From the NCBI RefSeq assembly GCF_038446665.1, contig NZ_CP151802.1:1550001-1614000 (forward strand): a DNA stretch of 64,000 nucleotides, read 5' to 3'. Numbering within the stretch: the stretch's first letter is position 1; each line of letters begins with the position of its first letter. Positions 25,132 to 45,708 of the stretch are shown here, one piece after another. Both the position numbers and the translations under genes were made by a program. Source of the stretch: Lysobacter sp. FW306-1B-D06B. GTDB taxonomy: Bacteria; Pseudomonadota; Gammaproteobacteria; Xanthomonadales; Xanthomonadaceae. Below the pieces are notes generated by a model that saw only the letters and a list, made by a program, of their open reading frames with translations, was not told where the DNA came from and ran no database searches.

Positions 25132-25923
25132 ATGGACATGCTGCTCGCCGCATGGCGCTATCGCTTCTTTGTCCTGTCCTCCATCCGTAACGACCTGCGC
25201 TCGCGTTTCATCCGCAGCAAGCTGGGTGGGCTGTGGATGGTCATCCACCCGCTCGCGCAGGTGCTGATCTTCGCGACGATCCTTTCCGAAGTGCTCGCCG
25301 CCAAGCTTCCCGGCATCGATAACAAGTACGCCTACGCGCTGTACCTGATGGCGGGCATGCTTTGCTGGACGCTCTTCACGGAGACGGTCACGCGTTGCCT
25401 TTCGCTGTTCATCGACAGCGGCAACCTGATGAAGAAGATGGCGTTTCCGCGCATCTGCCTTCCGCTCATCGCGGCGGGCACCATGCTCGTCACCAATGTA
25501 TTGCTGCTGGCGGCGATCCTGCTGGTGTTCGCCGTGCTCGGCCACTTCCCGGGCTACCACATCGTGTGGCTGCCCCTGCTGATCCTGATCACGCTCGCCC
25601 TTTCGATGGGGCTCGGACTGATCCTTGGCGTGATGAACGTGTTCATGCGCGACATCGGGCAGGTGGTGCCTGTAGTGCTGCAGGCGTTGTTCTGGCTGAC
25701 GCCCATCGTCTACGTGACGAATATCATGCCGCAGAAGTTCCAGTTCTGGTTCAAGCTCAACCCGCTGTATCCGCTGGTGGCCAGCTACCAGAACGTGCTG
25801 GTTTTCGGCACCGCTCCGCTGTGGAGGGAGCTGCTGTGGCTTTGCGTGGGGATCATCGCGTTGCTTGTCGTCTCGCTGGTCGTGTTCCGTCGCGCCAGCC
25901 CTGAAATCGTGGACGCGCTATGA
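25132..25923 (+). CDS. wzm: ABC-2 type polysaccharide export permease
   Basis: A 263-aa inner-membrane permease with six predicted hydrophobic spans, from KLGGLWMVIHPLAQVLIFATIL to the last span LLWLCVGIIALLVVSLVVF. GLxWxxxxPLxxxxI at the start and VFMRDIGQVVPVVLQALFWLTPIVY are hallmarks of Wzm/KpsM/TagG transporters. It moves lipid-linked polysaccharide across the inner membrane, powered by the next gene product. It overlaps that gene by 4 bases. First gene of the plus-strand polysaccharide operon. Confidence 0.93.
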   Translation: MDMLLAAWRYRFFVLSSIRNDLRSRFIRSKLGGLWMVIHPLAQVLIFATILSEVLAAKLPGIDNKYAYALYLMAGMLCWTLFTETVTRCLSLFIDSGNLMKKMAFPRICLPLIAAGTMLVTNVLLLAAILLVFAVLGHFPGYHIVWLPLLILITLALSMGLGLILGVMNVFMRDIGQVVPVVLQALFWLTPIVYVTNIMPQKFQFWFKLNPLYPLVASYQNVLVFGTAPLWRELLWLCVGIIALLVVSLVVFRRASPEIVDAL

Positions 25924-27176
25924 GCGGTGTGCTTGAAGCCCGGGGCCTGGGCAAGGCCTATCGCCGCTGGCGCAGCGAGTGGCTGCGCGCAGCTTCGTGG
26001 TTCGGCGCTCCGGTCCGGCCTGCCGAGGAGCATTGGGTCCTGCGCGGCATCGACTTCGCGGTGGAAGCCGGACAGACGGTCGGCATCGTCGGCCAGAACG
26101 GAGCGGGGAAGAGCACGCTGCTCAAGCTCATCACCGGCACGACCCGACCGACCGAGGGAAGTGTTGCCACCGGCGGTCGCATCGCCGCGATCCTCGAACT
26201 TGGCATGGGATTCAACCCGGACCTCACCGGCCGCGAGAACGCCTTCCATTCGGCCGGCCTGATGGGATACAGCCGGGCGCAGATCGCCGAAGCCATGCCG
26301 GACATCGAAGCCTTCGCCGAGATCGGCGAGTACTTCGACGAGCCCGTGCGCACCTATTCCAGCGGCATGCAGATGCGCGTGGCATTCAGCGTGGCCACGG
26401 CCTTCAAGCCGGACCTGCTGATCGTCGACGAAGCCTTGTCTGTCGGCGACAGCTACTTCCAGCACAAGAGCTTCGATCGCATCCGTTCCTATCGCGACCA
26501 GGGCGTTTCGATCCTGCTGGTGACCCACAGCATGGGCGACGTGCGCACCTTGTGCGACCGGGTGATCCTGCTCGACAAGGGACGGGTCGTGAAGGACGGT
26601 GCGCCCGACGAGGTGGTCGATTTCTACAACGCGATGATCGCCGAGAAGGAAAACGAAGCCGGCTCCATCGAACAGGTTCGCCACGAGGCGGGCTGGCTGC
26701 AGACCCGCAGCGGAACCGGCGAGGCGCGCATCGTCGATCTGCGCCTGTTCGATGCGGACACCGGCAGCGAGGTGTCGATGGCGACGGTCGGCCAGCGCCT
26801 GAACTTGCGCCTGCGCGCGGAGATCCACGGCGATGTCCCGCAGCTCGTCCTGGGGTACATGCTCCGCGACCGGCAGGGGCACGTGGTGTGGGGCACCAAC
26901 ACCTGGCACACCGGACAGGTGCGCTCTGGACTCAAGGCGGGCGACACGGTGGAGTTCGCGATGAACTTCACCTGCACGCTGGGTCCGGGCTCCTACTCCG
27001 TCTCGCCGGCGCTGGTGAGCACGGACACCCACCTGGTGAACAACTACGAGTGGGTCGACAACCTGCTCGTTTTCGACGTGATGAACGTTTCGTCGCCGAC
27101 GTTCATCGGCAGCAACTGGCTAGATGCACGCTTCGACATCGGCGGCGCCGGGTCGAGCGCGAACTCGCGCGAATGA
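25920..27176 (+). CDS. wzt: ABC exporter ATPase with C-terminal carbohydrate-binding domain
   Basis: A 418-aa protein. The N-terminal ATPase has Walker A GQNGAGKST (about 58-66), signature YSSGMQMRVAFSVA and Walker B LLIVDEALSVGD. From about residue 265 a C-terminal beta domain follows (IVDLRLFDADTGSEVSMATVGQRLNLR...GHVVWGTNTWHTG), which is the Wzt CBD fold that reads the non-reducing end of the finished glycan in systems such as E. coli O8/O9a. Its presence predicts a chain-terminated, ABC-exported O-antigen. The FkbM gene follows after 46 bases. Confidence 0.93.
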   Translation: MSGVLEARGLGKAYRRWRSEWLRAASWFGAPVRPAEEHWVLRGIDFAVEAGQTVGIVGQNGAGKSTLLKLITGTTRPTEGSVATGGRIAAILELGMGFNPDLTGRENAFHSAGLMGYSRAQIAEAMPDIEAFAEIGEYFDEPVRTYSSGMQMRVAFSVATAFKPDLLIVDEALSVGDSYFQHKSFDRIRSYRDQGVSILLVTHSMGDVRTLCDRVILLDKGRVVKDGAPDEVVDFYNAMIAEKENEAGSIEQVRHEAGWLQTRSGTGEARIVDLRLFDADTGSEVSMATVGQRLNLRLRAEIHGDVPQLVLGYMLRDRQGHVVWGTNTWHTGQVRSGLKAGDTVEFAMNFTCTLGPGSYSVSPALVSTDTHLVNNYEWVDNLLVFDVMNVSSPTFIGSNWLDARFDIGGAGSSANSRE

Positions 27177-31525: not shown

Positions 31526-33452
<1,927 letters not shown>

Positions 33453-33498
33453 AAGCCGGGCCGCTGCCTGCCCACAGGGCGCAATAAGGGGGATTGGA

Positions 33499-35589
33499 AT
33501 GTCGAGCGGTTGGGGATTGACCGGCGGCCAGTGGGAACGTCACCACGTTGCCGCGGCGCGCGTTGCGAAGATGGCGCTGCTGGTGGTGCTGGCGTGCAAT
33601 CTGGCGCTGATGATGGACTACGTCTTCTTCGGCTACTTCGGATACTTCCATTCTGATTCTGCGGCCAAGAATCTTCTGGCGCAGGAAATGTACGAGGCCG
33701 GTTCGTACTTCCCGCCGGACTGGACATACGTGAATGGCGACCTCATGGTCGTGTTCGGGCAGCTCTTCATCCTGCCGTTCCTTCCATTCGCGAAGAATGG
33801 TTACTTGCTGCATGCAATCGCGGGTGCAGTGACGTCGCTGCTGGTGCTCTGGGGAACCTGGCTGGCGGCCGGCATCGCGATACGGTCGGCCTGGATCCGC
33901 CTGCTCTGCGTGGCGATCGTCGCCAGCGGTCTGTCGCTACAGGTCGCCGAGAATTTTTTCGGCCAGGGGTCTTACGGCGCCGTGTTCTATCTCGCCTGTT
34001 TTCAGGTCTACCTGGCATGGCGATTCATGCAGGCCGACGGGCGCAGTAACTGGCTGTGGGGCGCTCTGCTTGCCATCGTTGTCACGCTGGCTTTCTGGAG
34101 CAATACGCAGCGCGCAGCGGCCTCGTACGCGTTGCCGCTGTTGGCGGTGATCGCGGTCGACGTCCTCTTCCGCGCGTGGAGTTCGGGCTTTCACGTGGAC
34201 CAGCGGCTGCGAAAGTCCATTGTCCTTGCCGGAATCATCCTTGGCGCAGGATTGCTTGGCGCTGTCCTTCACGCGGCGGTGCTCGCGCGAGTGGACAACA
34301 TCCAGGGGGCCGGCATGGCCCGTTGGCTGAACCCCGGCGAGATGATGCGCAATCTTGGGTTCACGCTGCAGGGCGTGCTGGAGATCTTTGGCGCGATGCC
34401 GACGGCGGGCGCCGATGTGGTCGGATTGGTGGGTGCATACCAGGCTGTGCGCTTCATCGCGGGGTTGGCACTCGTGCCGCTCATCGTCGTGGCACTCATC
34501 GCCGAAATCCGTAATCCACAACCGGGACGTCGCTTCCTGGCGGCTTTTGCGGCAGCGTCGCTGGTGCTGTTCTGCTTTCTGCAGGCGACGACCACGATTC
34601 CGGATATGTCGAATCCTGCGTTCTCCTCCCGGTATCTCGTGCCTTCGGTCGTGCTTTCGCTCCTGGTCGTGGTGGCCCATGCGTTCGATCCGAACGCGCG
34701 GCCCCTGTTCCGTGTGACCGGCGTGCTCGTTTCGCTCGTGCTGCTTGGGAGCGGCATTTCCCCCGACAATCCCATATCGCGCCCGCAGGTTCATCGGCCT
34801 GAGAACCTTCAGACGCCGGTAGTCGGATGGCTGAAGGAGCAGGGCTTGCGCTATGGCTACGGCTCGTACTGGAATGCCGGCGCACTGACGGTGATGGGCG
34901 ATTCACGCTTCAAGGTTCGGCAGATCCAGATCGTGCGCGGCTTGCCAAGGCCCATGTTCCATCTGTCTTCCGAACGCTGGTATCGCCCTGATGCGTGGCA
35001 GGGCAAGACATTCTTCGTACTGACTGACGAGGAACTTGCCGCGCTCGACATGCCGCTGCTGACTTCCCTGATTGGCGACGTGGTCCAGAGCGAAAAGTTG
35101 GGCAAGTTCACCGTGCTCGTCTTTCCGCGCAACCCGGCAGATATTCTGCCCGGCTGGGACGACGAGCTGAGGCGGCCGCTGCGGCTCACGCCCTCGCCGA
35201 TGTCGATGCACAACGTGGGCGAACTGGTCCAGCCCGCAGGTGGAGCGCCCATGCTGGTCAGCAAAGGCACGAGCGGCTATCTCCACTTCGGCCCATACGT
35301 GAAGCTCGAGGACGGCCAGTACAGTGCCACGTTCGATATTGAAGTGACGGGCACTCCGCGGCCAGGCGTCGCGCATCTGGACGTCGTGGCGAATGCGGGC
35401 GCCGATGTACGCGCTGTCGGTGCGCCTACGCGCGCCGGGCGGCAGCGCGTCACGCTCCCGTTCGATCTGCCCCGTGATGTCAGCGATCTGGAGATCCGCG
35501 TCCTCACCGACGGCTCCAGCGAACTTCGCCTGTACGGCATCCAGTTGCAGCGTCGCGGCCCGGTCGCGGGCAAGCCGCCCAAGCCTTGA
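33499..35589 (+). CDS. GT-C-like integral membrane glycosyltransferase
   Basis: A 696-aa inner-membrane protein with about 10-12 hydrophobic spans in residues 20-430 and a soluble periplasmic C-terminus. After the first span, YFHSDSAAKNLLAQEM places Asp53 in the first loop, as the catalytic Asp of GT-C (ArnT/PMT-like) enzymes. The C-terminal ~100 residues (YLHFGPYVKLEDGQYSATFDI...) look like a beta-sandwich carbohydrate-binding module. Such enzymes use polyprenyl-phosphate sugars in the periplasm. The ATG at 33499 has a GGGGGA site. The family is not recognised precisely. Confidence 0.7.
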   Translation: MSSGWGLTGGQWERHHVAAARVAKMALLVVLACNLALMMDYVFFGYFGYFHSDSAAKNLLAQEMYEAGSYFPPDWTYVNGDLMVVFGQLFILPFLPFAKNGYLLHAIAGAVTSLLVLWGTWLAAGIAIRSAWIRLLCVAIVASGLSLQVAENFFGQGSYGAVFYLACFQVYLAWRFMQADGRSNWLWGALLAIVVTLAFWSNTQRAAASYALPLLAVIAVDVLFRAWSSGFHVDQRLRKSIVLAGIILGAGLLGAVLHAAVLARVDNIQGAGMARWLNPGEMMRNLGFTLQGVLEIFGAMPTAGADVVGLVGAYQAVRFIAGLALVPLIVVALIAEIRNPQPGRRFLAAFAAASLVLFCFLQATTTIPDMSNPAFSSRYLVPSVVLSLLVVVAHAFDPNARPLFRVTGVLVSLVLLGSGISPDNPISRPQVHRPENLQTPVVGWLKEQGLRYGYGSYWNAGALTVMGDSRFKVRQIQIVRGLPRPMFHLSSERWYRPDAWQGKTFFVLTDEELAALDMPLLTSLIGDVVQSEKLGKFTVLVFPRNPADILPGWDDELRRPLRLTPSPMSMHNVGELVQPAGGAPMLVSKGTSGYLHFGPYVKLEDGQYSATFDIEVTGTPRPGVAHLDVVANAGADVRAVGAPTRAGRQRVTLPFDLPRDVSDLEIRVLTDGSSELRLYGIQLQRRGPVAGKPPKP

Positions 35590-35650: not shown

Positions 35651-36790
35651 TCAGGCGCCGAGCATGACGCCCAGCGCTTCGTCCGCCGCTTCCAGGACGC
35701 GATCGAGCTGCGGTTCCAGTCCCACCCAAAGGGGCAGCCGCACCAGACGATCGCTGGTCGTGTCGGTCACCGGCAACTCGCCATGGGCACGGCCGCACTG
35801 AAGGCCGGTCGGTGCGCTGTGCAGCGGGATGTAGTGGAACACCGTGCCCACGCCGGACTCCTTCATCCGCGCCATGAAGCGCGTGCGGTGCTCCAGGCTC
35901 GGCATCAGCAGGTAGTACATGTGCGCGTTGTGCCCGCAATGCTCCGGAACGATCGGGCGGCGCAGCAGGCCATCGGCCTCGTGGCGTTCGGCCCAGGCGT
36001 GGTAGCGATCCCAGATGGCGATGCGGCGACGGGTGATCTCGTCGCCCTCGTCCATCTGCGCGGCCAGGAACGCGGCGATGAGTTCGCTCGGCAGGTAGGA
36101 AGAACCCTTGTCGACCCAGGTGTACTTGTCGACCTGGCCGCGGAAGAACTTGCTGCGGTTGGTGCCCTTCTCGCGGATGATCTCGGCACGCTCGGCGAAC
36201 GTCTCGTCGCGAACGATCAGCGCGCCGCCTTCGCCCGAGATGATGTTCTTCGTCTCGTGGAAGCTCATCGCGCCAAGTTCGCCGATCGCGCCCAGCGGTC
36301 GTCCCTTGTAGGTGGAGTAGATGCCCTGTGCGGCGTCTTCCACGACGTGCAGGCCATGACGACGGGCGATGTCCATGATGGCGTCCATCTCGCACGCGAC
36401 ACCGGCGTAGTGCACGACGCAAATGGCTTTCGTGCGCGGCGTGATCGCGGCTTCGATCAGGCGCTCATCGAGGTTGAGCGTGTCCGGCCGGATGTCGACG
36501 AACACCGGTATGGCGCCCCGCAACACGAAGGCGTTGGCGGTCGAAACGAACGTGAAGGACGGCATGATCACTTCGTCGCCGGGCTCCAGGTCCAGGAGCA
36601 GGGCTGCCATCTCCAGCGCCGCGGTGCACGAGTGCGTGAGCAGCGCGCGGCGGGCCCCGGTGTGCTGCTCCAGCCACTGGTTGCAGCGCTTGGTGAAGAT
36701 CCCATCGCCCGACAGATGGCCATTGGTGTGCGCCTGGGCGATGTTCGACAGCTCGCGGCCCGTCATATAGGGCTTGTTGAACGGAATCAC
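35651..36790 (-). CDS. wecE: dTDP-4-amino-4,6-dideoxygalactose transaminase (WecE/RffA)
   Basis: A 379-aa PLP aminotransferase that would convert dTDP-4-keto-6-deoxyglucose to dTDP-Fuc4N. The match with enterobacterial WecE is high along the chain: MIPFNKPYMTG, RRALLTHSCTAALEMAALLL, PSFTFVSTANAFVLRG, VHYAGVACEMD, SFHETKN with PLP Lys181, and EIIREKGTNRSKFFRGQVDKYTW. The GTG at 36790 (GGAG 7 bases upstream) gives the family N-terminus. It is the last gene of the minus operon. The donor nucleotide sugar genes rmlA/rmlB are not in the window. Confidence 0.92.
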   Translation of the reverse strand: MIPFNKPYMTGRELSNIAQAHTNGHLSGDGIFTKRCNQWLEQHTGARRALLTHSCTAALEMAALLLDLEPGDEVIMPSFTFVSTANAFVLRGAIPVFVDIRPDTLNLDERLIEAAITPRTKAICVVHYAGVACEMDAIMDIARRHGLHVVEDAAQGIYSTYKGRPLGAIGELGAMSFHETKNIISGEGGALIVRDETFAERAEIIREKGTNRSKFFRGQVDKYTWVDKGSSYLPSELIAAFLAAQMDEGDEITRRRIAIWDRYHAWAERHEADGLLRRPIVPEHCGHNAHMYYLLMPSLEHRTRFMARMKESGVGTVFHYIPLHSAPTGLQCGRAHGELPVTDTTSDRLVRLPLWVGLEPQLDRVLEAADEALGVMLGA

Positions 36791-36821: not shown

Positions 36822-37445
36822 TCAGCGCGTGCATTCGAGGATGCAGTGGGTGTAAGGCACGTAGAGCATGTCATGCCGCACGGTCGTCTTCACCGAGCCG
36901 AACGCTTGCGTCGCAAGGGACGTGTACTGCCCGGGTTCGCGGATGTTCTGCCCTCGGTCCTTGAGGATGATCGTGCGTGCCATGCCGGACTGGTCCGGGA
37001 CGAGGGTGCCGTCGATGGTGATGAGTCGGCCGCCCGGGCGCAGCTTGTTCCAGGCCGTCCGCATCAGGGCGGCCGCACGATCGTCGTCGAGGTGGTGCAG
37101 CAGGCCGATGGCCAGGGCAATGTCGGCGCCGCCGTCGTGCGCAGTGTCCTGGTAGTCGGCGACGTCGATGCACTCGAAGCTGCCGCGATCACCGAAGCGC
37201 CGGCGCGCTGCGTCGATATAATCCTGCGACAGGTCGAAGCCGATGTAGCGAACGTGCTCGGGCAGGTGGCGCAGCATTTCGGCCGTGCCGCAGCCGATGT
37301 CGAACACGAGGTCGCCCTGCTCGGGCCGGATGTAATCGCGGACCAGGATGCGGCGACTGCGTTCGGCACCCAGTATCCGCTGGGTCAGATCGTAGACGAC
37401 GGCCGAGGAGAGTACCGAACGAACGCCATGGGTGATCTGTGCCAC
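36822..37445 (-). CDS. SAM-dependent class I methyltransferase
   Basis: A 207-aa methyltransferase. Motif I is DLVFDIGCGTAEML, followed by YIGFDLSQDYIDAAR and ALAIGLLHHLDDDRAAALM, and LRPGGRLITIDGT. The GTG at 37445 with AGGAA upstream is chosen because it begins just after the membrane-protein gene (2-base gap). It lies between a wecE-like gene and an SMR-like gene, so a lipid carrier or sugar is a plausible acceptor; the actual substrate is unknown. Confidence 0.85.
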   Translation of the reverse strand: MAQITHGVRSVLSSAVVYDLTQRILGAERSRRILVRDYIRPEQGDLVFDIGCGTAEMLRHLPEHVRYIGFDLSQDYIDAARRRFGDRGSFECIDVADYQDTAHDGGADIALAIGLLHHLDDDRAAALMRTAWNKLRPGGRLITIDGTLVPDQSGMARTIILKDRGQNIREPGQYTSLATQAFGSVKTTVRHDMLYVPYTHCILECTR

Positions 37446-37447
37446 GT

Positions 37448-37813
37448 CTAGATTCCTGATCGTGAAAGAACGATGACACCGGCGATCACCAGCGCAGTGC
37501 CGCCGACCTTGTGCATGTCGAAATTCTCGTGGAACAGCCAGGCGGCCAGCAGCGCCACCAGCGGGAAACTCAGGGCGGTGAAAGGATACGCCTTGCTCAG
37601 CGGCAATCGGCTGATGGCGGCCATCCAGCACAGCGATGCGCCGAACGCCGCGGCAAAGGCGCTGATGACCCATGGATTCAACAACAGCGTCAGGATCGGA
37701 CGCAGCGTCAGGTTCTCGATGGTCGCCGTCGGATTCAGGCCAACCTGCCATTTCAGGACGATCTGACCGTACACGGTCAGCAGGATCGTCAGGGCGATGA
37801 AGACATAGCTCAC
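37448..37813 (-). CDS. SMR/EamA-like four-helix membrane protein (candidate flippase subunit)
   Basis: A 121-aa inner-membrane protein with four spans: YVFIALTILLTVYGQIVLKW, ILTLLLNPWVISAFAAAFG, ALSFPLVALLAAWLF and GGTALVIAGVIVLS. It is of the small multidrug-resistance/ArnE-ArnF size class. In a sugar operon such proteins flip undecaprenyl-phosphate sugars rather than export drugs. The acidic residue typical of EmrE (Glu14) is absent from span 1, which also argues against drug efflux. Confidence 0.75.
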   Translation of the reverse strand: MSYVFIALTILLTVYGQIVLKWQVGLNPTATIENLTLRPILTLLLNPWVISAFAAAFGASLCWMAAISRLPLSKAYPFTALSFPLVALLAAWLFHENFDMHKVGGTALVIAGVIVLSRSGI

Positions 37814-37894: not shown

Positions 37895-39256
37895 CTAGTG
37901 GCCTGCATCCGGCGTGCCGATGAGTGCCGACAGTTCGGCCGTCTGCCGCTCAAGCAGCGCGGCGTCGCCACGCGTTTCGACGTTGAGGCGCAGCAGCGGC
38001 TCGGTGTTCGAACTGCGCAGGTTGAAACGCCAATCGCCGAAGTCCGCGCTGGTGCCGTCGGTGTAGTCCAGCACGGGGTTCCTCGGCAGGTAATGGTCCA
38101 TCACCCGGGCGATGGCCTCGCGCGAATCGGCGACCCTGAAGTTGATTTCGCCGCTGCACGGGAAACGGCGCATGCGTTCCTCCACCAGATCGGCGAGCGA
38201 GGTCCCACTGGTCGAGATCAATTCGGCGATGAGCAGCCACGGGATCATTCCCGAATCCGCATAGGCGAAGTCGCGGAAGTAGTGGTGCGCGCTCATCTCG
38301 CCGCCGTACACGGCGTTCTCGGTCCGCATGCGTTCCTTGATGAAGGCATGGCCGGTCTTGCTGAGCACGGGGATGCCACCGGCTTGGTTGACCATCTCGA
38401 TCGTGTTCCAGGTCAGCCGCGGATCGTGGATCACCTTGGCGCCCGGATTGCGGCGCAGGATGGTCTGGGCCAGCAGGCCGACCAGGTAGTAACCCTCGAT
38501 GAAACGGCCGCGATGATCGAAGAAGAAGCAGCGGTCGAAGTCGCCGTCCCAGGCCAGTCCCAGGTCCGCGCCACTTGCGATCACGGCGTCCATGGTGGCC
38601 TGGCGGTTCTGCGGAAGCAGCGGATTCGGGATGCCGTTGGGGAAGCGACCGTCCGGTTCGTGGAACACCCGCACGAACTCGAACGGCAGGTGCGGCGCAA
38701 GCAGGTCCACGATCGCACCGGCGCCGCCATTGCCCGCATTCGTCACGATCTTCAGCGGACGCAGCGCGGCGGTATCGATATAGCCGAGCAGGTGCGAGAT
38801 GAACGCCGACTTCTCCGGATGCGGGAGGCGCGCGCCGGCGTCGCGGTCGGTGGGAACCGTAAGCGTCCACACCGAGTCACGGATCGCGAACAGGCCCGAG
38901 TCGCCGCTGATGGGCTTGGCCTCCTCGCGCACCAGCTTCATGCCGTTGTAGTCGATCGGGTTGTGGCTGGCGGTCACCATGACGCCGCCTGCCGCGTCCA
39001 GATGATCGGTCTGGAAATACACCTCTTCCGTGCCGCATTCCCCGATGTCGAGCACATCGCGGCCCGTGGCGCGAAGTCCGTCGATGAGCGCGGTCTGGAT
39101 CGGGACGCTGCTCAGACGCACGTCGCGGCCCACCACGATGCGACCGGGATCGAGCATTCCCGCGAGCGCCACGCCGATGCGGGTCGCCATGTCTTCGTTG
39201 AGTTCATCCGGCACGCGGCCGCGGATGTCATAGGCTTTGAAGGCAGAGAGGGTCAT
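37895..39256 (-). CDS. manB: Phosphomannomutase / phosphoglucomutase
   Basis: A 453-aa alpha-D-phosphohexomutase. N-terminal FKAYDIRGRVPDELN, the phospho-serine loop VMVTASHNPIDYNGMK, the metal loop AWDGDFDRCFFFD, the sugar loop GGEMSAHHYFRD and the C-terminal phosphate loop LRSSNTEPLLRLNVE are all present. It would make mannose-1-phosphate for XanB. Near its 5' end the LuxC-like gene ends after a 29-base gap. Confidence 0.95.
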   Translation of the reverse strand: MTLSAFKAYDIRGRVPDELNEDMATRIGVALAGMLDPGRIVVGRDVRLSSVPIQTALIDGLRATGRDVLDIGECGTEEVYFQTDHLDAAGGVMVTASHNPIDYNGMKLVREEAKPISGDSGLFAIRDSVWTLTVPTDRDAGARLPHPEKSAFISHLLGYIDTAALRPLKIVTNAGNGGAGAIVDLLAPHLPFEFVRVFHEPDGRFPNGIPNPLLPQNRQATMDAVIASGADLGLAWDGDFDRCFFFDHRGRFIEGYYLVGLLAQTILRRNPGAKVIHDPRLTWNTIEMVNQAGGIPVLSKTGHAFIKERMRTENAVYGGEMSAHHYFRDFAYADSGMIPWLLIAELISTSGTSLADLVEERMRRFPCSGEINFRVADSREAIARVMDHYLPRNPVLDYTDGTSADFGDWRFNLRSSNTEPLLRLNVETRGDAALLERQTAELSALIGTPDAGH

Positions 39257-39285: not shown

Positions 39286-40509
39286 TCAGACGCTGGCGAG
39301 CGTCACCTGTCGGCGCAGGACGCTGAACAGGTCGGTGCCATCCCAGACATGATGGAAGTCGAGCGCGCGGCCGAAGGGCACGACGCGGTCGATGGCGCGG
39401 CCGCGCAGTTGCGCGAGCAGGGCGTCGATGTCGGCGGAGTCGAAGCCGAACTGCACCAGGGTCTGATCGCGATCGTCGAGCTGCGCGCCCATGTCGGCCA
39501 GCGACGGCAGTTCCACTTCCACGACCAGCCCGTTGCCGGACTGGAGCTCGCGAACATCGCCATCCGAATGTGCGGCCTGCAGACGGATCGGAAAAGACGC
39601 AAAGCCGCCGTCGATGGTCTCGGCGTGCCCCAGCGCGGCCAGCAGGTGCGCATCGGTCACGCGACTCATCAGCGCGGCGGCCTCGTCCTCGAAGCGCGCC
39701 GAATCCTCACGCACCGCGCGCCATAGGCGGGACTTGGCGCGCGCGATCGTCTCGTGATCGCCGATCCAGTACAGGCAGCGCGGCGACGAGCATGCCTGCT
39801 GGCCGAACCACAGGATGTCGTTGGCGAAACGCCGCGCGAGCGGTTGCAGATCGTCTTCGCCGACCGCGTCCAGCGCGGCCGCGGAAATCGCAGCGACGCC
39901 GAAGCGGTCCGGGAACGCCAGCTCCACTGCAAGCGGCGGCAGCGATATCGCGCGGATGGTGCGAACCGTGCTGTCCCCGCCCCAGACGATGCGTGCGTGG
40001 CAGTGCGAGGAAAGCTGCGCGGTGATCGCGGCGTCGTGCGGATAGGTGAGCAGGATCGTCCGGTCGAGGACCTCCGCGTGCAGGCCCTCCTCGCGCATCG
40101 CGCCGAGGATGCCGATCAGGGCGTCGCGCTGCGCGCTGGGCTTCTGCGACAGGCGCGCTACGTTGGCGTTGCCGGACAGCACCGACATCAGCCAGGCGTA
40201 GGCGAACAGCACGTCGACGTTGGCCGGAGCCAGATGGAACACGAGGCCGCGCGCGAGGATGCGGTTGCCTTCGACCGCGGACGCGCGCCGCTCAAGATGA
40301 GCGATACCGGCCGGGCGGAACCAGTGCGCGAGCGTCGCCAGTTCCGGGTGCGCGCGAAGCTGCGGGAGCTTGAGCACACGCCGCGAGAAATCGCCGACGA
40401 ACTCCGTGGCGGCGTGCGAGAACGGCTGCAGCGTGCCCAGCGTCCGCAGCCGCTTGAGCTGCGCCGAAAGGTCGGGGTCGGCCGAACTGGAGAACAGGAA
40501 CGTCGTCAT
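39286..40509 (-). CDS. LuxC-like acyl-CoA/acyl-protein reductase
   Basis: A 407-aa protein of the LuxC acyl-reductase family (aldehyde-dehydrogenase fold). LAPANVDVLFAYAWLMSVLSGNANVARLS is the diagnostic N-terminal stretch, IVWGGDSTVRTIR binds nucleotide, and Cys240 in WFGQQACSSPRCL is the expected acyl-cysteine. LuxC reduces acyl groups handed over by LuxE to aldehydes with NADPH. Luciferase genes luxAB are absent. The ATG at 40509 overlaps the LuxE-like gene by 4 bases. Confidence 0.87.
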   Translation of the reverse strand: MTTFLFSSSADPDLSAQLKRLRTLGTLQPFSHAATEFVGDFSRRVLKLPQLRAHPELATLAHWFRPAGIAHLERRASAVEGNRILARGLVFHLAPANVDVLFAYAWLMSVLSGNANVARLSQKPSAQRDALIGILGAMREEGLHAEVLDRTILLTYPHDAAITAQLSSHCHARIVWGGDSTVRTIRAISLPPLAVELAFPDRFGVAAISAAALDAVGEDDLQPLARRFANDILWFGQQACSSPRCLYWIGDHETIARAKSRLWRAVREDSARFEDEAAALMSRVTDAHLLAALGHAETIDGGFASFPIRLQAAHSDGDVRELQSGNGLVVEVELPSLADMGAQLDDRDQTLVQFGFDSADIDALLAQLRGRAIDRVVPFGRALDFHHVWDGTDLFSVLRRQVTLASV

Positions 40510-41600
40510 GGCGTGGGAACCGTCCGGGTATCGCTGCAACCGCGTACTTCCACGTTCTTCAGGCGGCCCAGCACGCCGAAATGCTTGCCCTTGCGTCCGC
40601 AAGGGCAATCGTCCTCGCCATGCACGACGCCCAGGTCCTCCGTCAGGAGGCTATGCCCGGGGTAGCTGCGCGGCAGCAGGCTCAGCACCTGGATCACACC
40701 AGACGTTCCATTGGGCACGGGAGTCAGGTCGTCCGTGCTGCGAACGATCACGTCCGCATAGGCCGGTGAGTGCAGGTGGCCGTGTTCGCACTCGAAGAAC
40801 ACCGAGCCGACCTGCTCGACCATGCCGTAGTAGTTGTGCACGCGCTCCAGGCCCAGGACGTCATGCAGGGCCGCCTTGAACGCGGCGTTGTCCACCTTGG
40901 CTTCCTCCATCTTCTTCCAGCCGCCGCCATGCACCAGCAGGCTGCCATGCGGAAGGCGGAAGCGGCGGCCGTCGCGTCGTGCGGCCATCACCAGCGATTG
41001 CCACACGATGTACGTGAAGCCGAACAGGAACACCGGCTGGTCGGGATGGCGCTCCAGCCAGGCCTGCAGTGCGTCCCAGTCGGGCCGGAGCTGTTCGTCG
41101 AGCAGGTACTTGTGGTCGCGACCGAAATTGGCGAAGCCGAGGATGCCGGCGGCGCGCGCGTTGAACCGCGTGCGATCGCGCAGGAAGCTGTCGTCGTCCA
41201 CGACGAGCATGGGCATGCGCTTGTTGCCGGCGAACTCGGCGAAGATCCGGGTCAGCGCGCGCGTTTGCGAGCGGGCGGTGTCGGCGTCGAGGAAGATCCG
41301 CGACACCGCGGCTCCCGTCGTGCCGCTGGATACGAGCGTACGCGAGACTTCCTCCTGCGCAACGCTCTTGAGGTCCAGCATCTTGAACAACCGGACAGGC
41401 AGCCAGGGCACGGATTCGAGGTCCTGCGCCTGGATCGAGGCCGGCCAGAGCGAATCGACCATGCGGCCGTACTCGGGGCAGTTCGCGCGATGGTGCCGCG
41501 TCAGTTCGTTGAGTCCGTCCAGCAGCCAGCGCCGTTTGGATTCCCGGTCGAGGCCGTACACGTCCGCTTCCAGCGGTGCGATCGCTTCAGTGGCGCTCAT
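40506..41600 (-). CDS. LuxE-like acyl-protein synthetase
   Basis: A 364-aa ATP-dependent acyl-activating protein of the LuxE family. RTLVSSGTTGAAVS (91-100) is the AMP-binding P-loop; WLPVRLFKMLDLKSV, YGMVEQVGSVFFECEHGHLHSPAYADV and LLTEDLGVVH follow the family order. LuxE adenylates a fatty acid and passes the acyl group to LuxC. It overlaps both neighbours by 4 bases, so it forms a fixed LuxE-LuxC pair with the preceding ligase gene. Confidence 0.88.
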   Translation of the reverse strand: MSATEAIAPLEADVYGLDRESKRRWLLDGLNELTRHHRANCPEYGRMVDSLWPASIQAQDLESVPWLPVRLFKMLDLKSVAQEEVSRTLVSSGTTGAAVSRIFLDADTARSQTRALTRIFAEFAGNKRMPMLVVDDDSFLRDRTRFNARAAGILGFANFGRDHKYLLDEQLRPDWDALQAWLERHPDQPVFLFGFTYIVWQSLVMAARRDGRRFRLPHGSLLVHGGGWKKMEEAKVDNAAFKAALHDVLGLERVHNYYGMVEQVGSVFFECEHGHLHSPAYADVIVRSTDDLTPVPNGTSGVIQVLSLLPRSYPGHSLLTEDLGVVHGEDDCPCGRKGKHFGVLGRLKNVEVRGCSDTRTVPTP

Positions 41601-43006
41601 GCTCGTACATCCTGGGCTTCGCTCATGCTGCGAAGCGCCTGATAGTCGGTCTTGCCGGTCGGCAACAGCGGCAGGGTGTCCAGCGCCACCGACCGCACAT
41701 GCCCGGGAAAGAGCTTGTAACGCTGCTGGATCAATTGCTTGATGCGCGTGGGCTCGACGGGCGACTCGCCCGGGACGAAGACGACCAGGTCATCGTCGCG
41801 GCCGGAGCACGCCACCAGGCGCTGCAGCTCGGCGGAGAGCATGGATTCCACTTCATCGAGGTTCACCCGGTTGCCCGACACCTTGATGAAGCGCTTGGCG
41901 CGCCCGGTGAGATGGAAGAACCCGTCCTCGTCGCGGCGGGCGAGGTCACCGGTGCGAAGCTCCCCGTTCGCCTGATCGCCCAGCGCCAGATCGCCGCGCG
42001 CCTCCGCGTAGCCCAGCATCACGTTCGGCCCGCGATAGATCAGTTCGCCAGTGTCCGCGTCGATGCGCAATTCGCCGCCGGGAATGGCGATGCCGATGCT
42101 GCCGACCTTCTCGCGAAGCCGCGCGGCAGGCACGTAACTGATGCGCGGGCCGGCCTCGGTCTGCCCGTACATCACGAAGAACTCAAGCCCCATGCGCCCG
42201 CACAAATCGAGGAAGGTCTCGATCATCGCGTCGCGCAGGCGGCCGCCGGCCTGCGTGAGCATGCGCAGGCGATCGAGCTGGAAGCGCTCAAGCCCCACGC
42301 GCCGCAGCATTTCGAAGGTCGCGGGCACGCCCGAGAGCGACGTGACGCCATGAGTGCGGGCAAGATCCCAGAAGCCGCGACCGACCAGGCTCTCCTCGGT
42401 GAGGATGATGGACCCGCCGACTTCCAGATGGCTGTTGAGGATCGACATGCCGAACGAGTAGGCCAGCGGCAGCGTCGTGATCGCGCGGTCGTCCTCGCGC
42501 AGGGCGAGGTACTGCGCGATCGCGCGCGCGTTGGAGGCGAGGCCTTCGTACGACAGGCGCACCAGCTTGGACGAGCCGGTGCTGCCGGACGTGCTCAGCA
42601 GCAGGGCAAGGTCCGGATGCGGTGCCTGCGCGTGCACCGGTTCGTCGCGGACGAGGACGACCAGGCCACCGCCGCGATGCGCCACGGCGTAGCCGGCCAT
42701 TTCGCTGCCGTCCGGAAGGGCGAGCCAGTCGGGACGGTAATGCGCCACCAGCGCGGCAAGCAGCGTCGCATCGACATCCGGCTGTACGAGCAGCGGAACA
42801 TGCCGCCGCGAACGCAGCGCGCCCAGGTACAGCGCAACCGCGTCGACGGTGCTGGGCATGCACAGAAAACCGACCGTTCGGCCCGGTCCCAGCACGGCCG
42901 CGGCACTGTCGGACAGGCGCGCCAGTTCGCCGTACGTCCACGAGCGCTGCGCATCGACAAGCGCGATCGCGTCGGCGCGTTGCCGCTCCAGTTCCCAGAA
43001 GGCCAT
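41597..43006 (-). CDS. AMP-dependent acyl ligase (ANL family)
   Basis: A 469-aa ligase. The P-loop STSGSTGSSK lies at 138-147, the A5-type motif is MYGQTEAGPRISYVP, and ELRTGDLARRDEDGFFHLTGRAKRFIKVSGNRVNLDEVES is the hinge region. Near the C-terminus LLPTGKTDYQAL holds the catalytic Lys. It would adenylate a carboxylic acid and load it on CoA or, more likely here, on the adjacent acyl carrier protein. It lies 3 bases downstream of the SDR gene. Confidence 0.9.
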   Translation of the reverse strand: MAFWELERQRADAIALVDAQRSWTYGELARLSDSAAAVLGPGRTVGFLCMPSTVDAVALYLGALRSRRHVPLLVQPDVDATLLAALVAHYRPDWLALPDGSEMAGYAVAHRGGGLVVLVRDEPVHAQAPHPDLALLLSTSGSTGSSKLVRLSYEGLASNARAIAQYLALREDDRAITTLPLAYSFGMSILNSHLEVGGSIILTEESLVGRGFWDLARTHGVTSLSGVPATFEMLRRVGLERFQLDRLRMLTQAGGRLRDAMIETFLDLCGRMGLEFFVMYGQTEAGPRISYVPAARLREKVGSIGIAIPGGELRIDADTGELIYRGPNVMLGYAEARGDLALGDQANGELRTGDLARRDEDGFFHLTGRAKRFIKVSGNRVNLDEVESMLSAELQRLVACSGRDDDLVVFVPGESPVEPTRIKQLIQQRYKLFPGHVRSVALDTLPLLPTGKTDYQALRSMSEAQDVRA

Positions 43007-43009
43007 CGC

Positions 43010-43753
43010 TCAGACCACCATGCGGCCGTCGATGCCGACGACCTGCCCGCTGACATAGGCCGACGCATCGTCGAGCAGGAAGGCGACGAGTTGCGCGACT
43101 TCCTGAGGCGTTCCTGCGCGGCCCAGGCCGATCGACGCGACGCGTGCGGCGTGCGCGGCCTCGGGCATCTCGCGTGTCATGTCGGTGTCGATGAAGCCGG
43201 GAGAAACCGCGTTGACGCGGATGCCGCGTGGCGCGAGTTCTTTCGAGGCGGAGAGCGTCGCGCCGATCATCGCGGCCTTGCTCGCCGAGTACAGCGTCAG
43301 GCCGGCCGCGCCCTGGACGCCCATGATCGAAACCAGGTTGACGATGCTCCCGCGCTTGTTGCGCGTCATCAGGCGCGCGGCGTACTGCATCAGCATCAGC
43401 GGCGCCTTGACGTTGACCGCGAGCACGCGGTCGATGTCGTCGGGGCGGATCATGCCGAGCACGCCTTCGTGCAGGATGCCGGCGTTGTTCACCAGCCCGT
43501 CGAGCTTGCGGTAACGCGCGAACAGATCCTGGAACAGCGCCGGGATGCCGTCGTCGCGAGTCAGGTCGAGGGAAGCGCAATGCGGTTCCGGTCCGCCCGC
43601 GGCAAGGCATTCGTCCGCCACGCCTTGCAGTGCATCCGCGTCGCGCGCGACGAGGACCAGCTGCGCGCCTTGACCAGCGCAATGCAGGGCGATCGCACGG
43701 CCGATGCCGCGCGATGCGCCCGTCACCACGATGACCTGGTCCTTCAGCGACAT
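43010..43753 (-). CDS. FabG-like short-chain dehydrogenase
   Basis: A 247-aa Rossmann enzyme. TGASRGIGRAIAL binds NAD(P), LVNNAGILHEGVL follows, and the catalytic set is Ser142, Tyr155 and Lys159 (YSASKAAMIG). The C-terminus AYVSGQVVGIDGRMVV is typical of beta-ketoacyl-ACP reductases. Next to an acyl carrier protein and a ligase, a 3-oxoacyl-to-3-hydroxyacyl step is likely. It sits one base downstream of the ACP gene. Confidence 0.92.
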   Translation of the reverse strand: MSLKDQVIVVTGASRGIGRAIALHCAGQGAQLVLVARDADALQGVADECLAAGGPEPHCASLDLTRDDGIPALFQDLFARYRKLDGLVNNAGILHEGVLGMIRPDDIDRVLAVNVKAPLMLMQYAARLMTRNKRGSIVNLVSIMGVQGAAGLTLYSASKAAMIGATLSASKELAPRGIRVNAVSPGFIDTDMTREMPEAAHAARVASIGLGRAGTPQEVAQLVAFLLDDASAYVSGQVVGIDGRMVV

Positions 43754-43754
43754 G

Positions 43755-43997
43755 TCAGGCCGCGGCGCCGTACTTGGCGAGGATCTCGCGCGCCTTGCCG
43801 ACGGAGCTCATGTCGATGACGTCGTCCATGTCGATCATCACGCCGAAGGCATCTTCCAGCGCCGCGATGACGGACATGTGCGCGATCGAATCCCACTCCG
43901 GGATCGTGGCGTAGCGCAGGTCGTCGGTGATGCGATCGGCGGGAATGCCGAGCACGCTGGAGAACGCCTGGACGACGCGGTCGGTGTTGTCGTTCAT
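43755..43997 (-). CDS. Acyl carrier protein
   Basis: An 80-aa acidic carrier. Ser37 in PEWDSIAHMSVIAALEDAFG is the phosphopantetheine attachment site; the usual DSL reads DSI here. The four-helix pattern is complete. It is not the housekeeping AcpP: its sequence diverges and it is coupled to a WecD-like acyltransferase gene by a 4-base overlap. It probably holds the acyl chain used in this cluster. Confidence 0.92.
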   Translation of the reverse strand: MNDNTDRVVQAFSSVLGIPADRITDDLRYATIPEWDSIAHMSVIAALEDAFGVMIDMDDVIDMSSVGKAREILAKYGAAA

Positions 43998-44755
43998 AGG
44001 TACTTCCTGAATCCGAAAAGAGTGGTGTCGAACCGGAATCCGAGCCTGGCGTACAGGTTCACGATGCCGGTGTTGGCGGCGGAGATGAGCGTCGAGCAGT
44101 CCTGCACGCCGCGCGCGGAAAGGGACTCCAGCGCGGTAATCCACAGTGGCATTGCCATGATGGCATAGCGTCCGGTGGCGCCGGTCAGGATCAGGTCGGC
44201 ATGACGACCGTCGGCGCTGACGCGTTCGGCATGGAAGCCGATGAGCTTGCCGTTCGACGTGGCCGCATAGGCGAGGCGCTGGCGGACGAGGTCTCCGATC
44301 CAGTTCGCGGTGCGTGCCGCCGCGAGGGCGGGGTCGATGGCGGGATCTTCCAGGAAGCGGCCGTGATTGAAGTCGTCGCGCGCGATGCGTTCGAGTTCGC
44401 CGATGTCGGCCTCTTCCGCCGGACGCAACGCGGGCCGCATGCGCGCGGGCACCGGCGGCAGTCCGGCGAAGCCGGCGCGGGACAGTGCGATCGAACATTC
44501 CACGATCGCGAAGCCGGCATCGAGCACGGCCTTCTTCGCCGATGGCGCTGCCGCGTCCACGCGGCCGAACAGGTAACGGACACCGTTCTCACGGCCCCAG
44601 CGCTCAACCTCTTCGATGAGCGGGCGCCCGGCCGGATCGTCCGAAACCTCCAGACGTACGATCTCGGCGGTCCGCATGCCCAGCGCGCGTTCGTCCCAGG
44701 GCGTCAGGCGCACTTCGGCGCGGCCACCGGCATGTTCGATGACGGTGGCGCTCAT
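43994..44755 (-). CDS. WecD-like GNAT N-acyltransferase
   Basis: A 253-aa two-part GNAT protein resembling TDP-Fuc4N acetyltransferase WecD: the N-terminal half has the VRLTPWDERALGMRTAEIVRL and NGVRYLFGRVDA... pattern, and the C-terminal half holds the GNAT core (LILTGATGRYAIMAMPLWITALE...ANTGIVNLYARLGFRF). With WecE in the same operon it would acylate the 4-amino group of dTDP-Fuc4N. The adjacent ACP suggests an acyl-ACP donor in place of acetyl-CoA; this is an inference. The ATG at 44755 overlaps the GT2 gene by 4 bases. Confidence 0.78.
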   Translation of the reverse strand: MSATVIEHAGGRAEVRLTPWDERALGMRTAEIVRLEVSDDPAGRPLIEEVERWGRENGVRYLFGRVDAAAPSAKKAVLDAGFAIVECSIALSRAGFAGLPPVPARMRPALRPAEEADIGELERIARDDFNHGRFLEDPAIDPALAAARTANWIGDLVRQRLAYAATSNGKLIGFHAERVSADGRHADLILTGATGRYAIMAMPLWITALESLSARGVQDCSTLISAANTGIVNLYARLGFRFDTTLFGFRKYL

Positions 44756-45708
44756 CGACGGGTGTCCTCGGCGAGGATGTAGTACGGGCGCCCCTGCACG
44801 TTGCGGAACACCTGGCCCACGTACAGGCCCACCACGCCCAGGCTGAAGAGCAGCATGCCCCCGACGAGCCAGATCGATGCGATCACCGAGGTGTAGCCGG
44901 CCACGGCCATGTCGCCGTCGATCCAGCGTGCCACCGCCAGTGCCACCATGAAGAACGACACCAGCGAGCACAGGATGCCGGCGAAGGCGACCAGCTTCAG
45001 CGGCTTTTCCGAATAGCCCAGGGTGATGTTGGTCGCCAGGCGCAGCAGTTTGCGCAGGGTGTACGTGCTGCGTCCTTCGGCACGCGGTGCGTGCTCGACC
45101 GGAAGCAGCCCGTGGCGGAAGCCGGCCCACTTCACCATGAGCGGGAAGGAGCGGTCCCGTTCCGGCATGCGGCACACCGCGTCGATCACCGGGCGGCGGA
45201 AGATGCCGAAGTTCGCGGTGCTTGCGTCCTGCTGCGAGCCGGTCAGCCAGGTCAGCAGCCGGAAGAAGCCCCACGACGACAGGCGCTTGCTCCAGCTGTC
45301 CTTGCGGTTCTGACGCTGCACGAAGACGACGTCGAAATTCTCGGAGGTCGCCTTGCGGTACAGGTCCGGAATCGCCGCGGGTGGATCCTGCAGATCGCAG
45401 TCCATCACCACGACCCACTCGCCCGTCGCGTGCTCGATGCCCGCGGAGATCGCCGAATGCTGACCGAAATTGCGGGCCAGGCGCAGGCCTCGCAGCCACG
45501 GGCGCGTCGTCGCGAGTTCCTGGATGCGCGACCATGCCTGGTCCGGGCTGGCGTCGTCGACGAGGATCACCTCGAAATCGTCGACGGTACCGCGCAGTTG
45601 CGCGGCCACCGAATCGACCAGCTCTTCCAGGCACCCGCGGCAGCCGTACACCGGCGAAACCACGGAAACGGTGGGCGTTGGGTTACCGGCGAGGGAAGGC
45701 GATTGCAT
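44752..45708 (-). CDS. GT2 polyprenyl-phosphate glycosyltransferase (ArnC/GtrB-like)
   Basis: A 318-aa GT-A enzyme: [46 protein letters not shown] (DxD-type metal site), followed by two C-terminal membrane spans ([24 protein letters not shown] and [25 protein letters not shown]). This is the DPM1/GtrB/ArnC layout that puts one sugar on undecaprenyl phosphate at the cytoplasmic face. The ATG at 45708 is selected so the protein starts just before the catalytic domain. It is the first gene of the minus operon, 40 bases after etfA. Confidence 0.92.

What the first reader, a model, noticed from the sequence alone, without database searches (positions are those of the whole stretch)
39286..44755. 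An acyl-activation and reduction cassette embedded in the O-antigen operon
Six genes overlap or nearly touch: WecD-like N-acyltransferase, ACP, FabG-like SDR, AMP ligase, LuxE-like and LuxC-like. With WecE in the same operon, the natural reading is that an unusual acyl group, such as a hydroxyacyl chain, is built on ACP and moved to the 4-amino group of dTDP-Fuc4N. LuxE/LuxC, usually known from luminescence, would add an acyl-to-aldehyde step whose use in a glycan is unclear. Comparable acyl cassettes occur in some flagellin or LPS glycosylation islands of pseudomonads, but this exact combination is not one I recognise. It is the best candidate for an undescribed system in the window.
Basis: inference. 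Interest (0 to 1): 0.8.

Follow-up and report, generated by a model that had tools for sequence, protein, structure and literature searches.

The report
O-antigen acyl cassette with LuxE/LuxC
A tight set of genes in a Lysobacter-type bacterium most likely builds a small hydroxylated acid on a carrier protein and attaches it to an amino sugar of the cell-surface polysaccharide, in the manner of a cholera O-antigen pathway but with swapped enzymes, and the same five kinds of gene turn up together in flagellar sugar islands of other bacteria.

Summary
Confirmed: six minus-strand genes at 39286-44755 overlap by 4 nt or lie 1-3 nt apart: WecD-fold GNAT, ACP, SDR, AMP ligase, LuxE, LuxC. They belong to a longer unit (ArnC-like GT2, ArnE/F-like flippase, WecE) in the same order in 11 of 11 Xanthomonadaceae loci examined, two redundant. 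All five core genes were found in 43 of 52 named loci; the core is already described in Aeromonas and enterobacterial flagellar islands. The closest pathway is Vibrio cholerae O1 tetronate (2,4-dihydroxybutanoate) synthesis: carrier protein, RfbL ligase, iron alcohol dehydrogenase, LuxE/LuxC-type RfbN, acyltransferase. Here LuxE and LuxC are separate, an SDR replaces the dehydrogenase and a GNAT the acyltransferase: it works like that module but is not a member. Best explanation: LuxE/LuxC and SDR reduce one carboxylate of a C4 diacid (malate); the ligase loads the dihydroxy acid on ACP; the GNAT puts it on dTDP-Fuc4N for side-chain assembly. Hint: Aeromonas flagellin, made beside such a cassette, carries unexplained 376.14-Da pseudaminic-acid and 102-Da units, fitting dihydroxybutanoyl (calculated 376.148, 102.032). 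The acid is inferred, not shown. New variant of a known kind.

The parts
44752..45708 (-). GT2 polyprenyl-phosphate glycosyltransferase (ArnC/PgfS-like), two C-terminal TM segments; overlaps the GNAT by 4 nt
   Evidence: PF00535 108.8 bits; PgfS and ArnC-type NCBIfam models below cut-off; hydropathy and junction; syntenic in 11 of 11 Xanthomonadaceae loci examined
43994..44755 (-). WecD-fold GNAT, predicted acyl-ACP : dTDP-Fuc4N N-acyltransferase
43755..43997 (-). acyl carrier protein, 80 aa, serine in DSI at residues 36-38
   Evidence: PF00550 36 bits; motif
43010..43753 (-). FabG-like SDR, predicted semialdehyde reductase
   Evidence: PF13561 201 bits; TIGR01830 225 bits, below its cut-off 297.75; TGASRGIG, NNAG and YSASK
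41597..43006 (-). AMP-forming acyl ligase, 469 aa, predicted to load the acid on the ACP (RfbL-like role)
   Evidence: PF00501 150 bits; the 25 best NCBIfam hits shown, some of them acyl-ACP ligase types, are all below cut-off; motifs
40506..41600 (-). LuxE-type acyl-protein synthetase, 364 aa, C-terminal acceptor cysteine kept
   Evidence: PF04443 182 bits; Cys aligned with 7xc6_E; nearest to the fused RfbN-type LuxE among the forms compared
39286..40509 (-). LuxC-type acyl-thioester reductase, 407 aa, catalytic Cys240 kept
   Evidence: PF05893 93.7 bits; QQACSSP invariant in 14 of 14 sequences aligned; aligned with 7xc6_A QQAC
37895..39256 (-). phosphomannomutase CpsG-like, in the same run of genes; probably for the GDP-sugar backbone, not the cassette
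   Evidence: Pfam PGM_PMM domains; NF011943 613 of 801 bits; matched only in the own-species locus
37448..37813 (-). ArnE/ArnF-like small flippase, 121 aa
   Evidence: PF00892, ArnF model 56 bits, below cut-off 99; syntenic
36822..37436 (-). SAM-dependent methyltransferase (start not fixed)
   Evidence: PF08242 60 bits
35651..36874 (-). WecE, dTDP-4-amino-4,6-dideoxygalactose transaminase (ORF start; the true start may lie near 36790)
   Evidence: NF008687 602 bits, cut-off 375; TIGR02379 (ECA_wecE) 595, cut-off 434.85
33376..35589 (+). ORF of a membrane protein with ten hydrophobic segments converging on WecE, candidate periplasmic (GT-C-type) transferase; start probably too long
   Evidence: hydropathy; no Pfam family

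Best explanation
The cassette makes a short hydroxylated acyl group on a dedicated ACP and attaches it by an amide to the 4-amino group of dTDP-Fuc4N, for a side branch of the O antigen. Inferred steps: (1) LuxE adenylates one carboxylate of a C4 diacid, most likely malate, and takes it onto its C-terminal cysteine; (2) LuxC reduces the thioester to the semialdehyde with NAD(P)H; (3) the SDR reduces the aldehyde to the alcohol, giving 2,4-dihydroxybutanoate (3-deoxytetronate); (4) the AMP ligase loads it on the ACP; (5) the WecD-type GNAT transfers it to the WecE product; (6) the GT2 moves the sugar to undecaprenyl phosphate, the ArnE/F-like protein flips it and a membrane glycosyltransferase attaches it in the periplasm. 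Shown here: the gene content, intact catalytic residues, WecD fold, WecE family scores, conserved gene neighbours. Inferred from families: the reaction types. Inferred by analogy with V. cholerae O1 and Aeromonas masses: the identity of the acid.
For: WecE over two cut-offs; WecD top fold by a clear margin; rmlA, rmlB in the genome and rmlB beside etfB in 7 of 11 Xanthomonadaceae loci. In other loci the gene before the ACP matches an amino-sugar N-acyltransferase model at E 1e-5: 19 of 28 PseH, 5 of 28 NeuD/PglB/VioB (28 of the 34 rows scanned). V. [quoted passage not shown] its antigen is perosamine acylated with tetronate (PMC3441752); RfbL is described as acting on 2,4-dihydroxybutanoic acid, with carrier protein RfbK (PMC12208996). 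LuxE here matches five RfbN-type fused proteins at 227-249 bits but the LuxE of PDB 7xc6 at 50.7; tree. The alcohol-forming slot is swapped: within 9.5 kb on the same strand an SDR in 60 of 67 split loci, an Fe-ADH (50 bits or more) in 0 of 67; Fe-ADH in 3 of 3 fused loci with DNA upstream, SDR in 0 of 5. No ketosynthase among the operon genes. Aeromonas AH-3, with the cassette behind pseH, has a 376.14-Da Pse derivative and an unknown 102-Da unit (PMC7874193); Pse5Ac7-dihydroxybutanoyl calculates to 376.148, the acyl to 102.032.
Against: No structure or enzyme assay for this cassette was found; the acid is unproven. The V. cholerae module uses other proteins at two of the five steps, and its pathway is itself titled putative. 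No ACP match was detected in any of the five fused loci, and the ligase in only 3 of 5. The mass match rests on one strain, and C4H6O3 also fits O-methylglyceroyl. The SDR is closest to FabG models, which invites a 3-oxoacyl reading. Loci L029-L032, L036 and L059 differ in layout, and in L030 ketosynthase-III, TPP-enzyme and NeuB genes stand before LuxE/LuxC, so LuxE/LuxC do not always mean the same product. The fused loci examined come from one genus. TIGR02379 describes its product as the D-gluco sugar, so Qui4N is not excluded.
Confidence: 0.5

Rival explanations
1. Same logic, another acid: LuxE/LuxC and the SDR reduce a different diacid (for example succinate or 2-hydroxyglutarate), and the GNAT transfers another omega-hydroxyacyl group.
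For: Nothing in the sequence fixes the acid; the ligase is far below the cut-offs of the 25 best NCBIfam models shown.
Against: Of the acyl groups calculated only C4H6O3 (dihydroxybutanoyl and isomers) fits the Aeromonas 376.14/102 masses; 4-hydroxybutanoyl would give 360.153. RfbL is tied to 2,4-dihydroxybutanoate.
Confidence: 0.2
2. A fatty-acid-type 3-hydroxyacyl group (such as 3-hydroxybutanoyl) is made on the ACP by the FabG-like SDR and put on Fuc4N; LuxE/LuxC serve a side role.
For: The SDR is nearest to FabG (TIGR01830 225 bits); N-4 3-hydroxybutanoyl bacillosamine is reported in several bacterial polysaccharides (PMC8074265, passages).
Against: No ketosynthase in the operon; SDR below the TIGR01830 cut-off 297.75; LuxE in 66 and the ligase in 65 of 67 split loci would be unexplained; in the fused relatives an Fe-ADH replaces the SDR.
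Confidence: 0.15
3. The LuxC aldehyde itself is the product used, for a carbon-carbon bond or a reductive amination, rather than being reduced to an alcohol.
For: In L030 LuxE/LuxC lie beside TPP-enzyme and NeuB-family genes, which act on aldehydes (the link is inference).
Against: No aldolase, TPP or NeuB-type gene among the genes of this operon.
Confidence: 0.08
4. LuxC runs in the oxidising direction, turning an aldehyde into an acyl thioester that is handed to the ACP.
For: LuxC belongs to the aldehyde dehydrogenase fold family (recalled).
Against: An AMP ligase and a LuxE, both of adenylating families, are present, which points to activation of free acids.
Confidence: 0.04

Closest known systems
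Vibrio cholerae O1 tetronate module (rfbKLMNO, wbe region; gene set partly recalled)
   Same: carrier protein (RfbK), ligase (RfbL/WbeL, 471 aa; here 469), LuxE- and LuxC-type activities (RfbN), N-acylation of a 4-amino-4,6-dideoxy sugar in an O antigen
   Different: LuxE and LuxC separate, SDR instead of iron alcohol dehydrogenase, WecD-type GNAT instead of the VC0252 acetyltransferase, dTDP-Fuc4N instead of perosamine; no V. cholerae sequence was compared
Aeromonas flagellar glycosylation island group II, orf1-orf3, luxE, luxC
   Same: the same five genes, listed in the same order, downstream of pseH, a GNAT-type gene (PMC7874193)
   Different: partner is PseH and pseudaminic acid on flagellin; here WecD-type GNAT and WecE in an O-antigen locus; sequences of Aeromonas were not compared
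Enterobacteriaceae flagellin islands with Acp, LuxE, LuxC, CaiC, FabG
   Same: same protein families, in islands of about 70-80 strains (PMC4875605)
   Different: flagellin context; read by those authors as fatty acid synthesis
Enterobacterial common antigen WecE/WecD
   Same: WecE family member; WecD fold
   Different: ECA uses acetyl-CoA (recalled); here a dedicated ACP and acyl genes lie beside it
Bioluminescence luxC/luxE
   Same: Pfam families and both catalytic cysteines
   Different: 70 of 550 and 29 of 750 bits against the lux equivalogs; no luciferase gene in the operon
Flavobacterium psychrophilum 3,5-dihydroxyhexanoyl genes wfpC-wfpG
   Same: O-antigen-specific ACP and acyltransferase to a 4-amino sugar (PMC6519341)
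   Different: uses ketosynthases; luxE does not occur in that paper's main text

Membership tests
V. cholerae O1-type tetronate module | dedicated ACP and AMP ligase | tested here: met
V. cholerae O1-type tetronate module | LuxE- and LuxC-type acyl reductase | tested here: met
   families and cysteines; separate genes, not the RfbN fusion
V. cholerae O1-type tetronate module | iron-containing alcohol dehydrogenase | tested here: not met
   SDR in its place; no Fe-ADH match in 67 of 67 split loci
V. cholerae O1-type tetronate module | acyltransferase of the hexapeptide type (type recalled; listed as acetyltransferase VC0252) | tested here: not met
   WecD-type GNAT fold
V. cholerae O1-type tetronate module | product 2,4-dihydroxybutanoyl amide on a 4-amino sugar | not testable with these tools
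   needs glycan chemistry
Aeromonas-type FGI acyl cassette | ACP, SDR, ligase, LuxE, LuxC together after a GNAT | tested here: met
   against PMC7874193; by annotation, not by sequence comparison
Aeromonas-type FGI acyl cassette | downstream of pseH among pse genes | tested here: not met
   the GNAT matches no NCBIfam model at E 0.001, PseH included; neighbours are etfA, GT2 and WecE
WecE (dTDP-Fuc4N transaminase) | score over curated cut-off | tested here: met
   602.4/375 and 594.9/434.85
WecD | match to an NCBIfam model | tested here: not met
   no NCBIfam family at E 0.001
WecD | WecD fold over the full length | tested here: met
Bioluminescence LuxC and LuxE | equivalog cut-offs | tested here: not met
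   28.9/750 and 69.7/550
FabG 3-oxoacyl-ACP reductase | TIGR01830 cut-off | tested here: not met
   225.3 of 297.75
Three-component (Arn/Gtr-like) periplasmic sugar addition | GT2, small flippase and membrane transferase | tested here: inconclusive
   GT2 and ArnE/F-like below specific cut-offs; membrane protein with ten hydrophobic segments, no Pfam family

The most novel reading that the evidence does not exclude
One mobile five-gene core (ACP, SDR, ligase, LuxE, LuxC) is a general 'make a dihydroxybutanoyl-ACP' device, plugged into whichever 4-amino-sugar N-acyltransferase stands beside it: WecD type in Xanthomonadaceae O antigens, PseH in flagellar pseudaminic acid, PglD/NeuD type elsewhere. 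It would be a separate evolutionary build of the cholera tetronate pathway and would explain the unidentified 376-Da sugar and 102-Da unit on Aeromonas flagellin.
Probability: 0.42. Interest if true: 0.72.

Novelty: new variant of a known kind. Interest (0 to 1): 0.56.

Why it matters
It gives LuxE/LuxC pairs outside luminescence a concrete job, ties an unassigned flagellar-island cassette to a known O-antigen acid, and predicts N-acyl groups from genome sequence. It also makes two open mass-spectrometry puzzles in Aeromonas testable by one gene deletion, and predicts that PseH- and WecD-type enzymes beside such cassettes use acyl-ACP rather than acetyl-CoA.

Tried and rejected
Luminescence: rejected by the equivalog scores. 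FabG-type chain building: kept as a rival, weakened by the missing ketosynthase. A scan of viral contigs found no relative of LuxE. Shewanella sfmABCDE was read as a possible published example (sections 5, 8, 10 part 1 and 13 of PMC3765264; outline): its operon is NeuB, TPP enzyme, SDR, methyltransferase and ATP-grasp, without LuxE or LuxC, so it does not bear on this cassette. I looked for a homologue of the window's membrane protein (33376-35589) among ORFs called in 72 loci: only the own-species locus L010 matched, so it is a candidate part only. My gene caller mixed shadow ORFs into GC-rich loci, so the tallies use tblastn instead. Duplicates inside the 67 split loci were not removed: L016/L148, L035/L138 and L060/L141 look the same, L010 is the own species, and L151 is not of the cassette type (no LuxE, ligase or ACP match, yet counted among the 60 with an SDR). 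Of the 34 rows, 28 went; dropped were L019 (129 nt away), L029 (105-aa overlapping ORF), L138 and L141 (duplicates), L142 (SDR) and L150 (window-type GNAT). Literature searches for an existing function of the cassette or a description in Lysobacter or Stenotrophomonas gave none in the rows listed; the library is open-access only, and searches found more papers than they listed.

Own limits: no V. cholerae or Aeromonas sequence was compared; their gene content comes from passages of papers. Bioluminescent LuxE was not in the tree. The Fe-ADH queries came from two Magnetococcales proteins, so a distant Fe-ADH could be missed.
Full report
Observation. The six genes exist as described, all on the minus strand, with junctions of -4, +1, +3, -4 and -4 nt. 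The genome is one 4.24-Mb contig in which the window is 1550001-1614000. The nearest named record, 100% identical in LuxC, is Lysobacter sp. MMG2. The genome has a single LuxC match and eight carrier-domain matches, one of them this ACP.

The unit is larger. In 11 of 11 Xanthomonadaceae loci examined the order is etfB, etfA, GT2, GNAT, ACP, SDR, ligase, LuxE, LuxC, ArnE/F-like, WecE; the loci were picked by their LuxC and two are redundant (own species L010; L016 and L148 from contigs of one length). RmlB stands beside etfB in 7 of the 11. Three Roseateles-group loci keep ACP, SDR, ligase, LuxE, LuxC, GNAT and WecE, two of them with GT2 and flippase. The GT2, flippase and a membrane protein (ten hydrophobic segments, no Pfam family) suggest undecaprenyl-linked, periplasmic addition to a polymer exported by the Wzm/Wzt-type transporter at 25132-27176. 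The cassette is patchy: LuxC in 7 of 296 genomes of the family (own and one of the same species included), in 6 of 46 genera, and in none of the ten further same-genus genomes listed. It is not GC-deviant (0.676 for 39286-45708 against 0.671 for the window).

The core is wide. A scan of one-genome-per-species contigs gave 52 loci encoding LuxC relatives; all five core genes were found in 43 of these 52. Of 397 genomes drawn from the phylum 23 match at E 0.001, 15 of them below E 1e-50 and 8 weakly, among the latter five with the fused form. Of 67 split loci (duplicates kept, one unrelated row L151), 66 have LuxE, 65 the ligase, 60 the ACP, 60 an SDR and none an Fe-ADH on the same strand within 9.5 kb. 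Directly before the ACP, 19 of 28 genes scanned match the PseH model and 5 of 28 the NeuD/PglB/VioB model at E 1e-5. The tally does not say how many pass the curated cut-offs (the one shown, L033, does not: 132 of 160.8) and does not give per-member overlap, but the folds differ. The Alteromonadaceae loci that dominate this set are related, so these are not 28 independent cases. Annotated plasmid records show the core in Ponticoccus and, rearranged, in Rhizobium anhuiense.

What it works like. V. cholerae O1 carries N-tetronyl perosamine (PMC3441752, passages). [quoted passage not shown] The original 1995 paper was not read; what I know of it beyond these lines is recalled. Fused LuxE-LuxC proteins of about 825 aa are frequent: all 120 listed of 682 matches carry both Pfam domains, and one is named RfbN. 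In five genomes of one genus (Magnetococcales by the protein names) the fused gene has an Fe-ADH directly upstream in 3 of 3 cases with DNA there, and the ligase downstream in 3 of 5; no ACP and no SDR match was found in any of the five. In a LuxE tree of 73 rows (47 split, 17 fused, 9 other) the fused type forms one side of a branch (SH-aLRT 96). Two of the nine others fell among the split rows on a very long branch; a tree holding split and fused types together is not rejected (p-AU 0.718) and is 8.07 log units better than the free quick tree. So the two forms look like sister builds with a different enzyme for the alcohol-forming step. That swap is the main reason to read the SDR as an aldehyde reductase.

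The acid. Malate to 2,4-dihydroxybutanoate needs exactly one carboxylate activation and reduction (LuxE, LuxC), one aldehyde reduction (SDR or ADH) and a second activation to ACP (ligase); this accounts for two adenylating enzymes in one cassette (inference). Aeromonas group II islands, with the core downstream of pseH (PMC7874193, passages), include strain AH-3, whose linking sugar is a 376.14-Da Pse derivative and whose glycan ends in an unknown 102-Da unit; a mutant in the glycosyltransferase fgi-1 keeps 376. Replacing one acetyl of Pse5Ac7Ac by C4H6O3 calculates to 376.148, and C4H6O3 is 102.032; C5H10O2 gives 376.185, 3-hydroxybutanoyl 360.153. This is one strain. Strain AH-1, described as lacking glycosyltransferase genes between its pse genes, has 403 Da (PMC4691044, passages), which this idea does not explain; the passages seen do not say whether it has the cassette. 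O-methylglyceroyl has the same formula as dihydroxybutanoyl. The authors read the genes as fatty acid synthesis and a possible liposugar.

Weak points. The acid, the direction of LuxC and the target polymer are inferred. Loci L029-L032, L036 and L059 differ in layout, and L030 has ketosynthase-III, TPP-enzyme and NeuB genes before LuxE/LuxC (L029 looks alike by its ORFs), so LuxE/LuxC alone do not fix a product. Seven of 67 split loci lack a detected SDR: four at contig or locus ends (L020, L026, L030, L034), three not (L050, L143, L144).

Verdict. An intact, conserved acylation module of an O-antigen locus: a new variant of the tetronate-type pathway, and a likely key to a known but unassigned flagellar-island cassette. 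Not a member of the V. cholerae module, because two defining enzymes differ.

Noticed in passing
L030 (Herbaspirillum) and, by its ORFs, L029 (Sphingomonadales); similar spacing in L031, L032, L036, L059: A variant cluster: ketosynthase-III, ligase, ACP, TPP-enzyme and NeuB genes before LuxE/LuxC (Pfam in L030), with dehydratase- and hydrolase-like ORFs by eye. It recalls Shewanella sfmABCDE (NeuB, TPP enzyme, SDR) and may build a nitrogen-free chain from an aldehyde.
   Followed up: partly
L055-L057, L144 between ligase and LuxE: An ORF of 1162-1205 aa is inserted between ligase and LuxE in these loci; its family was not scanned.
   Followed up: no
L164:6450-9972: In Ponticoccus alexandrii plasmid p-SCP1, LuxC lies on the opposite strand, set apart from ACP-SDR-ligase-LuxE by two ORFs, as after an insertion or inversion.
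   Followed up: no
L165: A large Rhizobium anhuiense bv. trifolii plasmid carries an acyltransferase annotated as LpxA-type, a carrier-sized ORF, AMP ligase, DegT aminotransferase, LuxE, LuxC and SDR, beside two transketolase genes; ten Rhizobium plasmid records match LuxE.
   Followed up: partly
P0053: A LuxC 63% identical to this one is labelled Isoptericola jiangsuensis, an actinobacterium, with a 4.6-Mb longest contig, amid Xanthomonadaceae hits: transfer or mislabelled assembly.
   Followed up: no
window 33376-35589: Plus-strand ORF for a membrane protein with ten hydrophobic segments and no Pfam family, converging on WecE; only the own-species locus has a homologue in the set compared.
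   Followed up: partly
G000:C1:2366214-2377372: Open frames of 2461 and 2881 aa with five carrier-domain matches in all: a large NRPS/PKS-type locus elsewhere in the genome (type inferred).
   Followed up: no
G000:C1:3808376-3810289: rmlBA lie about 2.2 Mb from the O-antigen locus here, whereas rmlB is next to etfB in 7 of 11 Xanthomonadaceae loci examined.
   Followed up: yes
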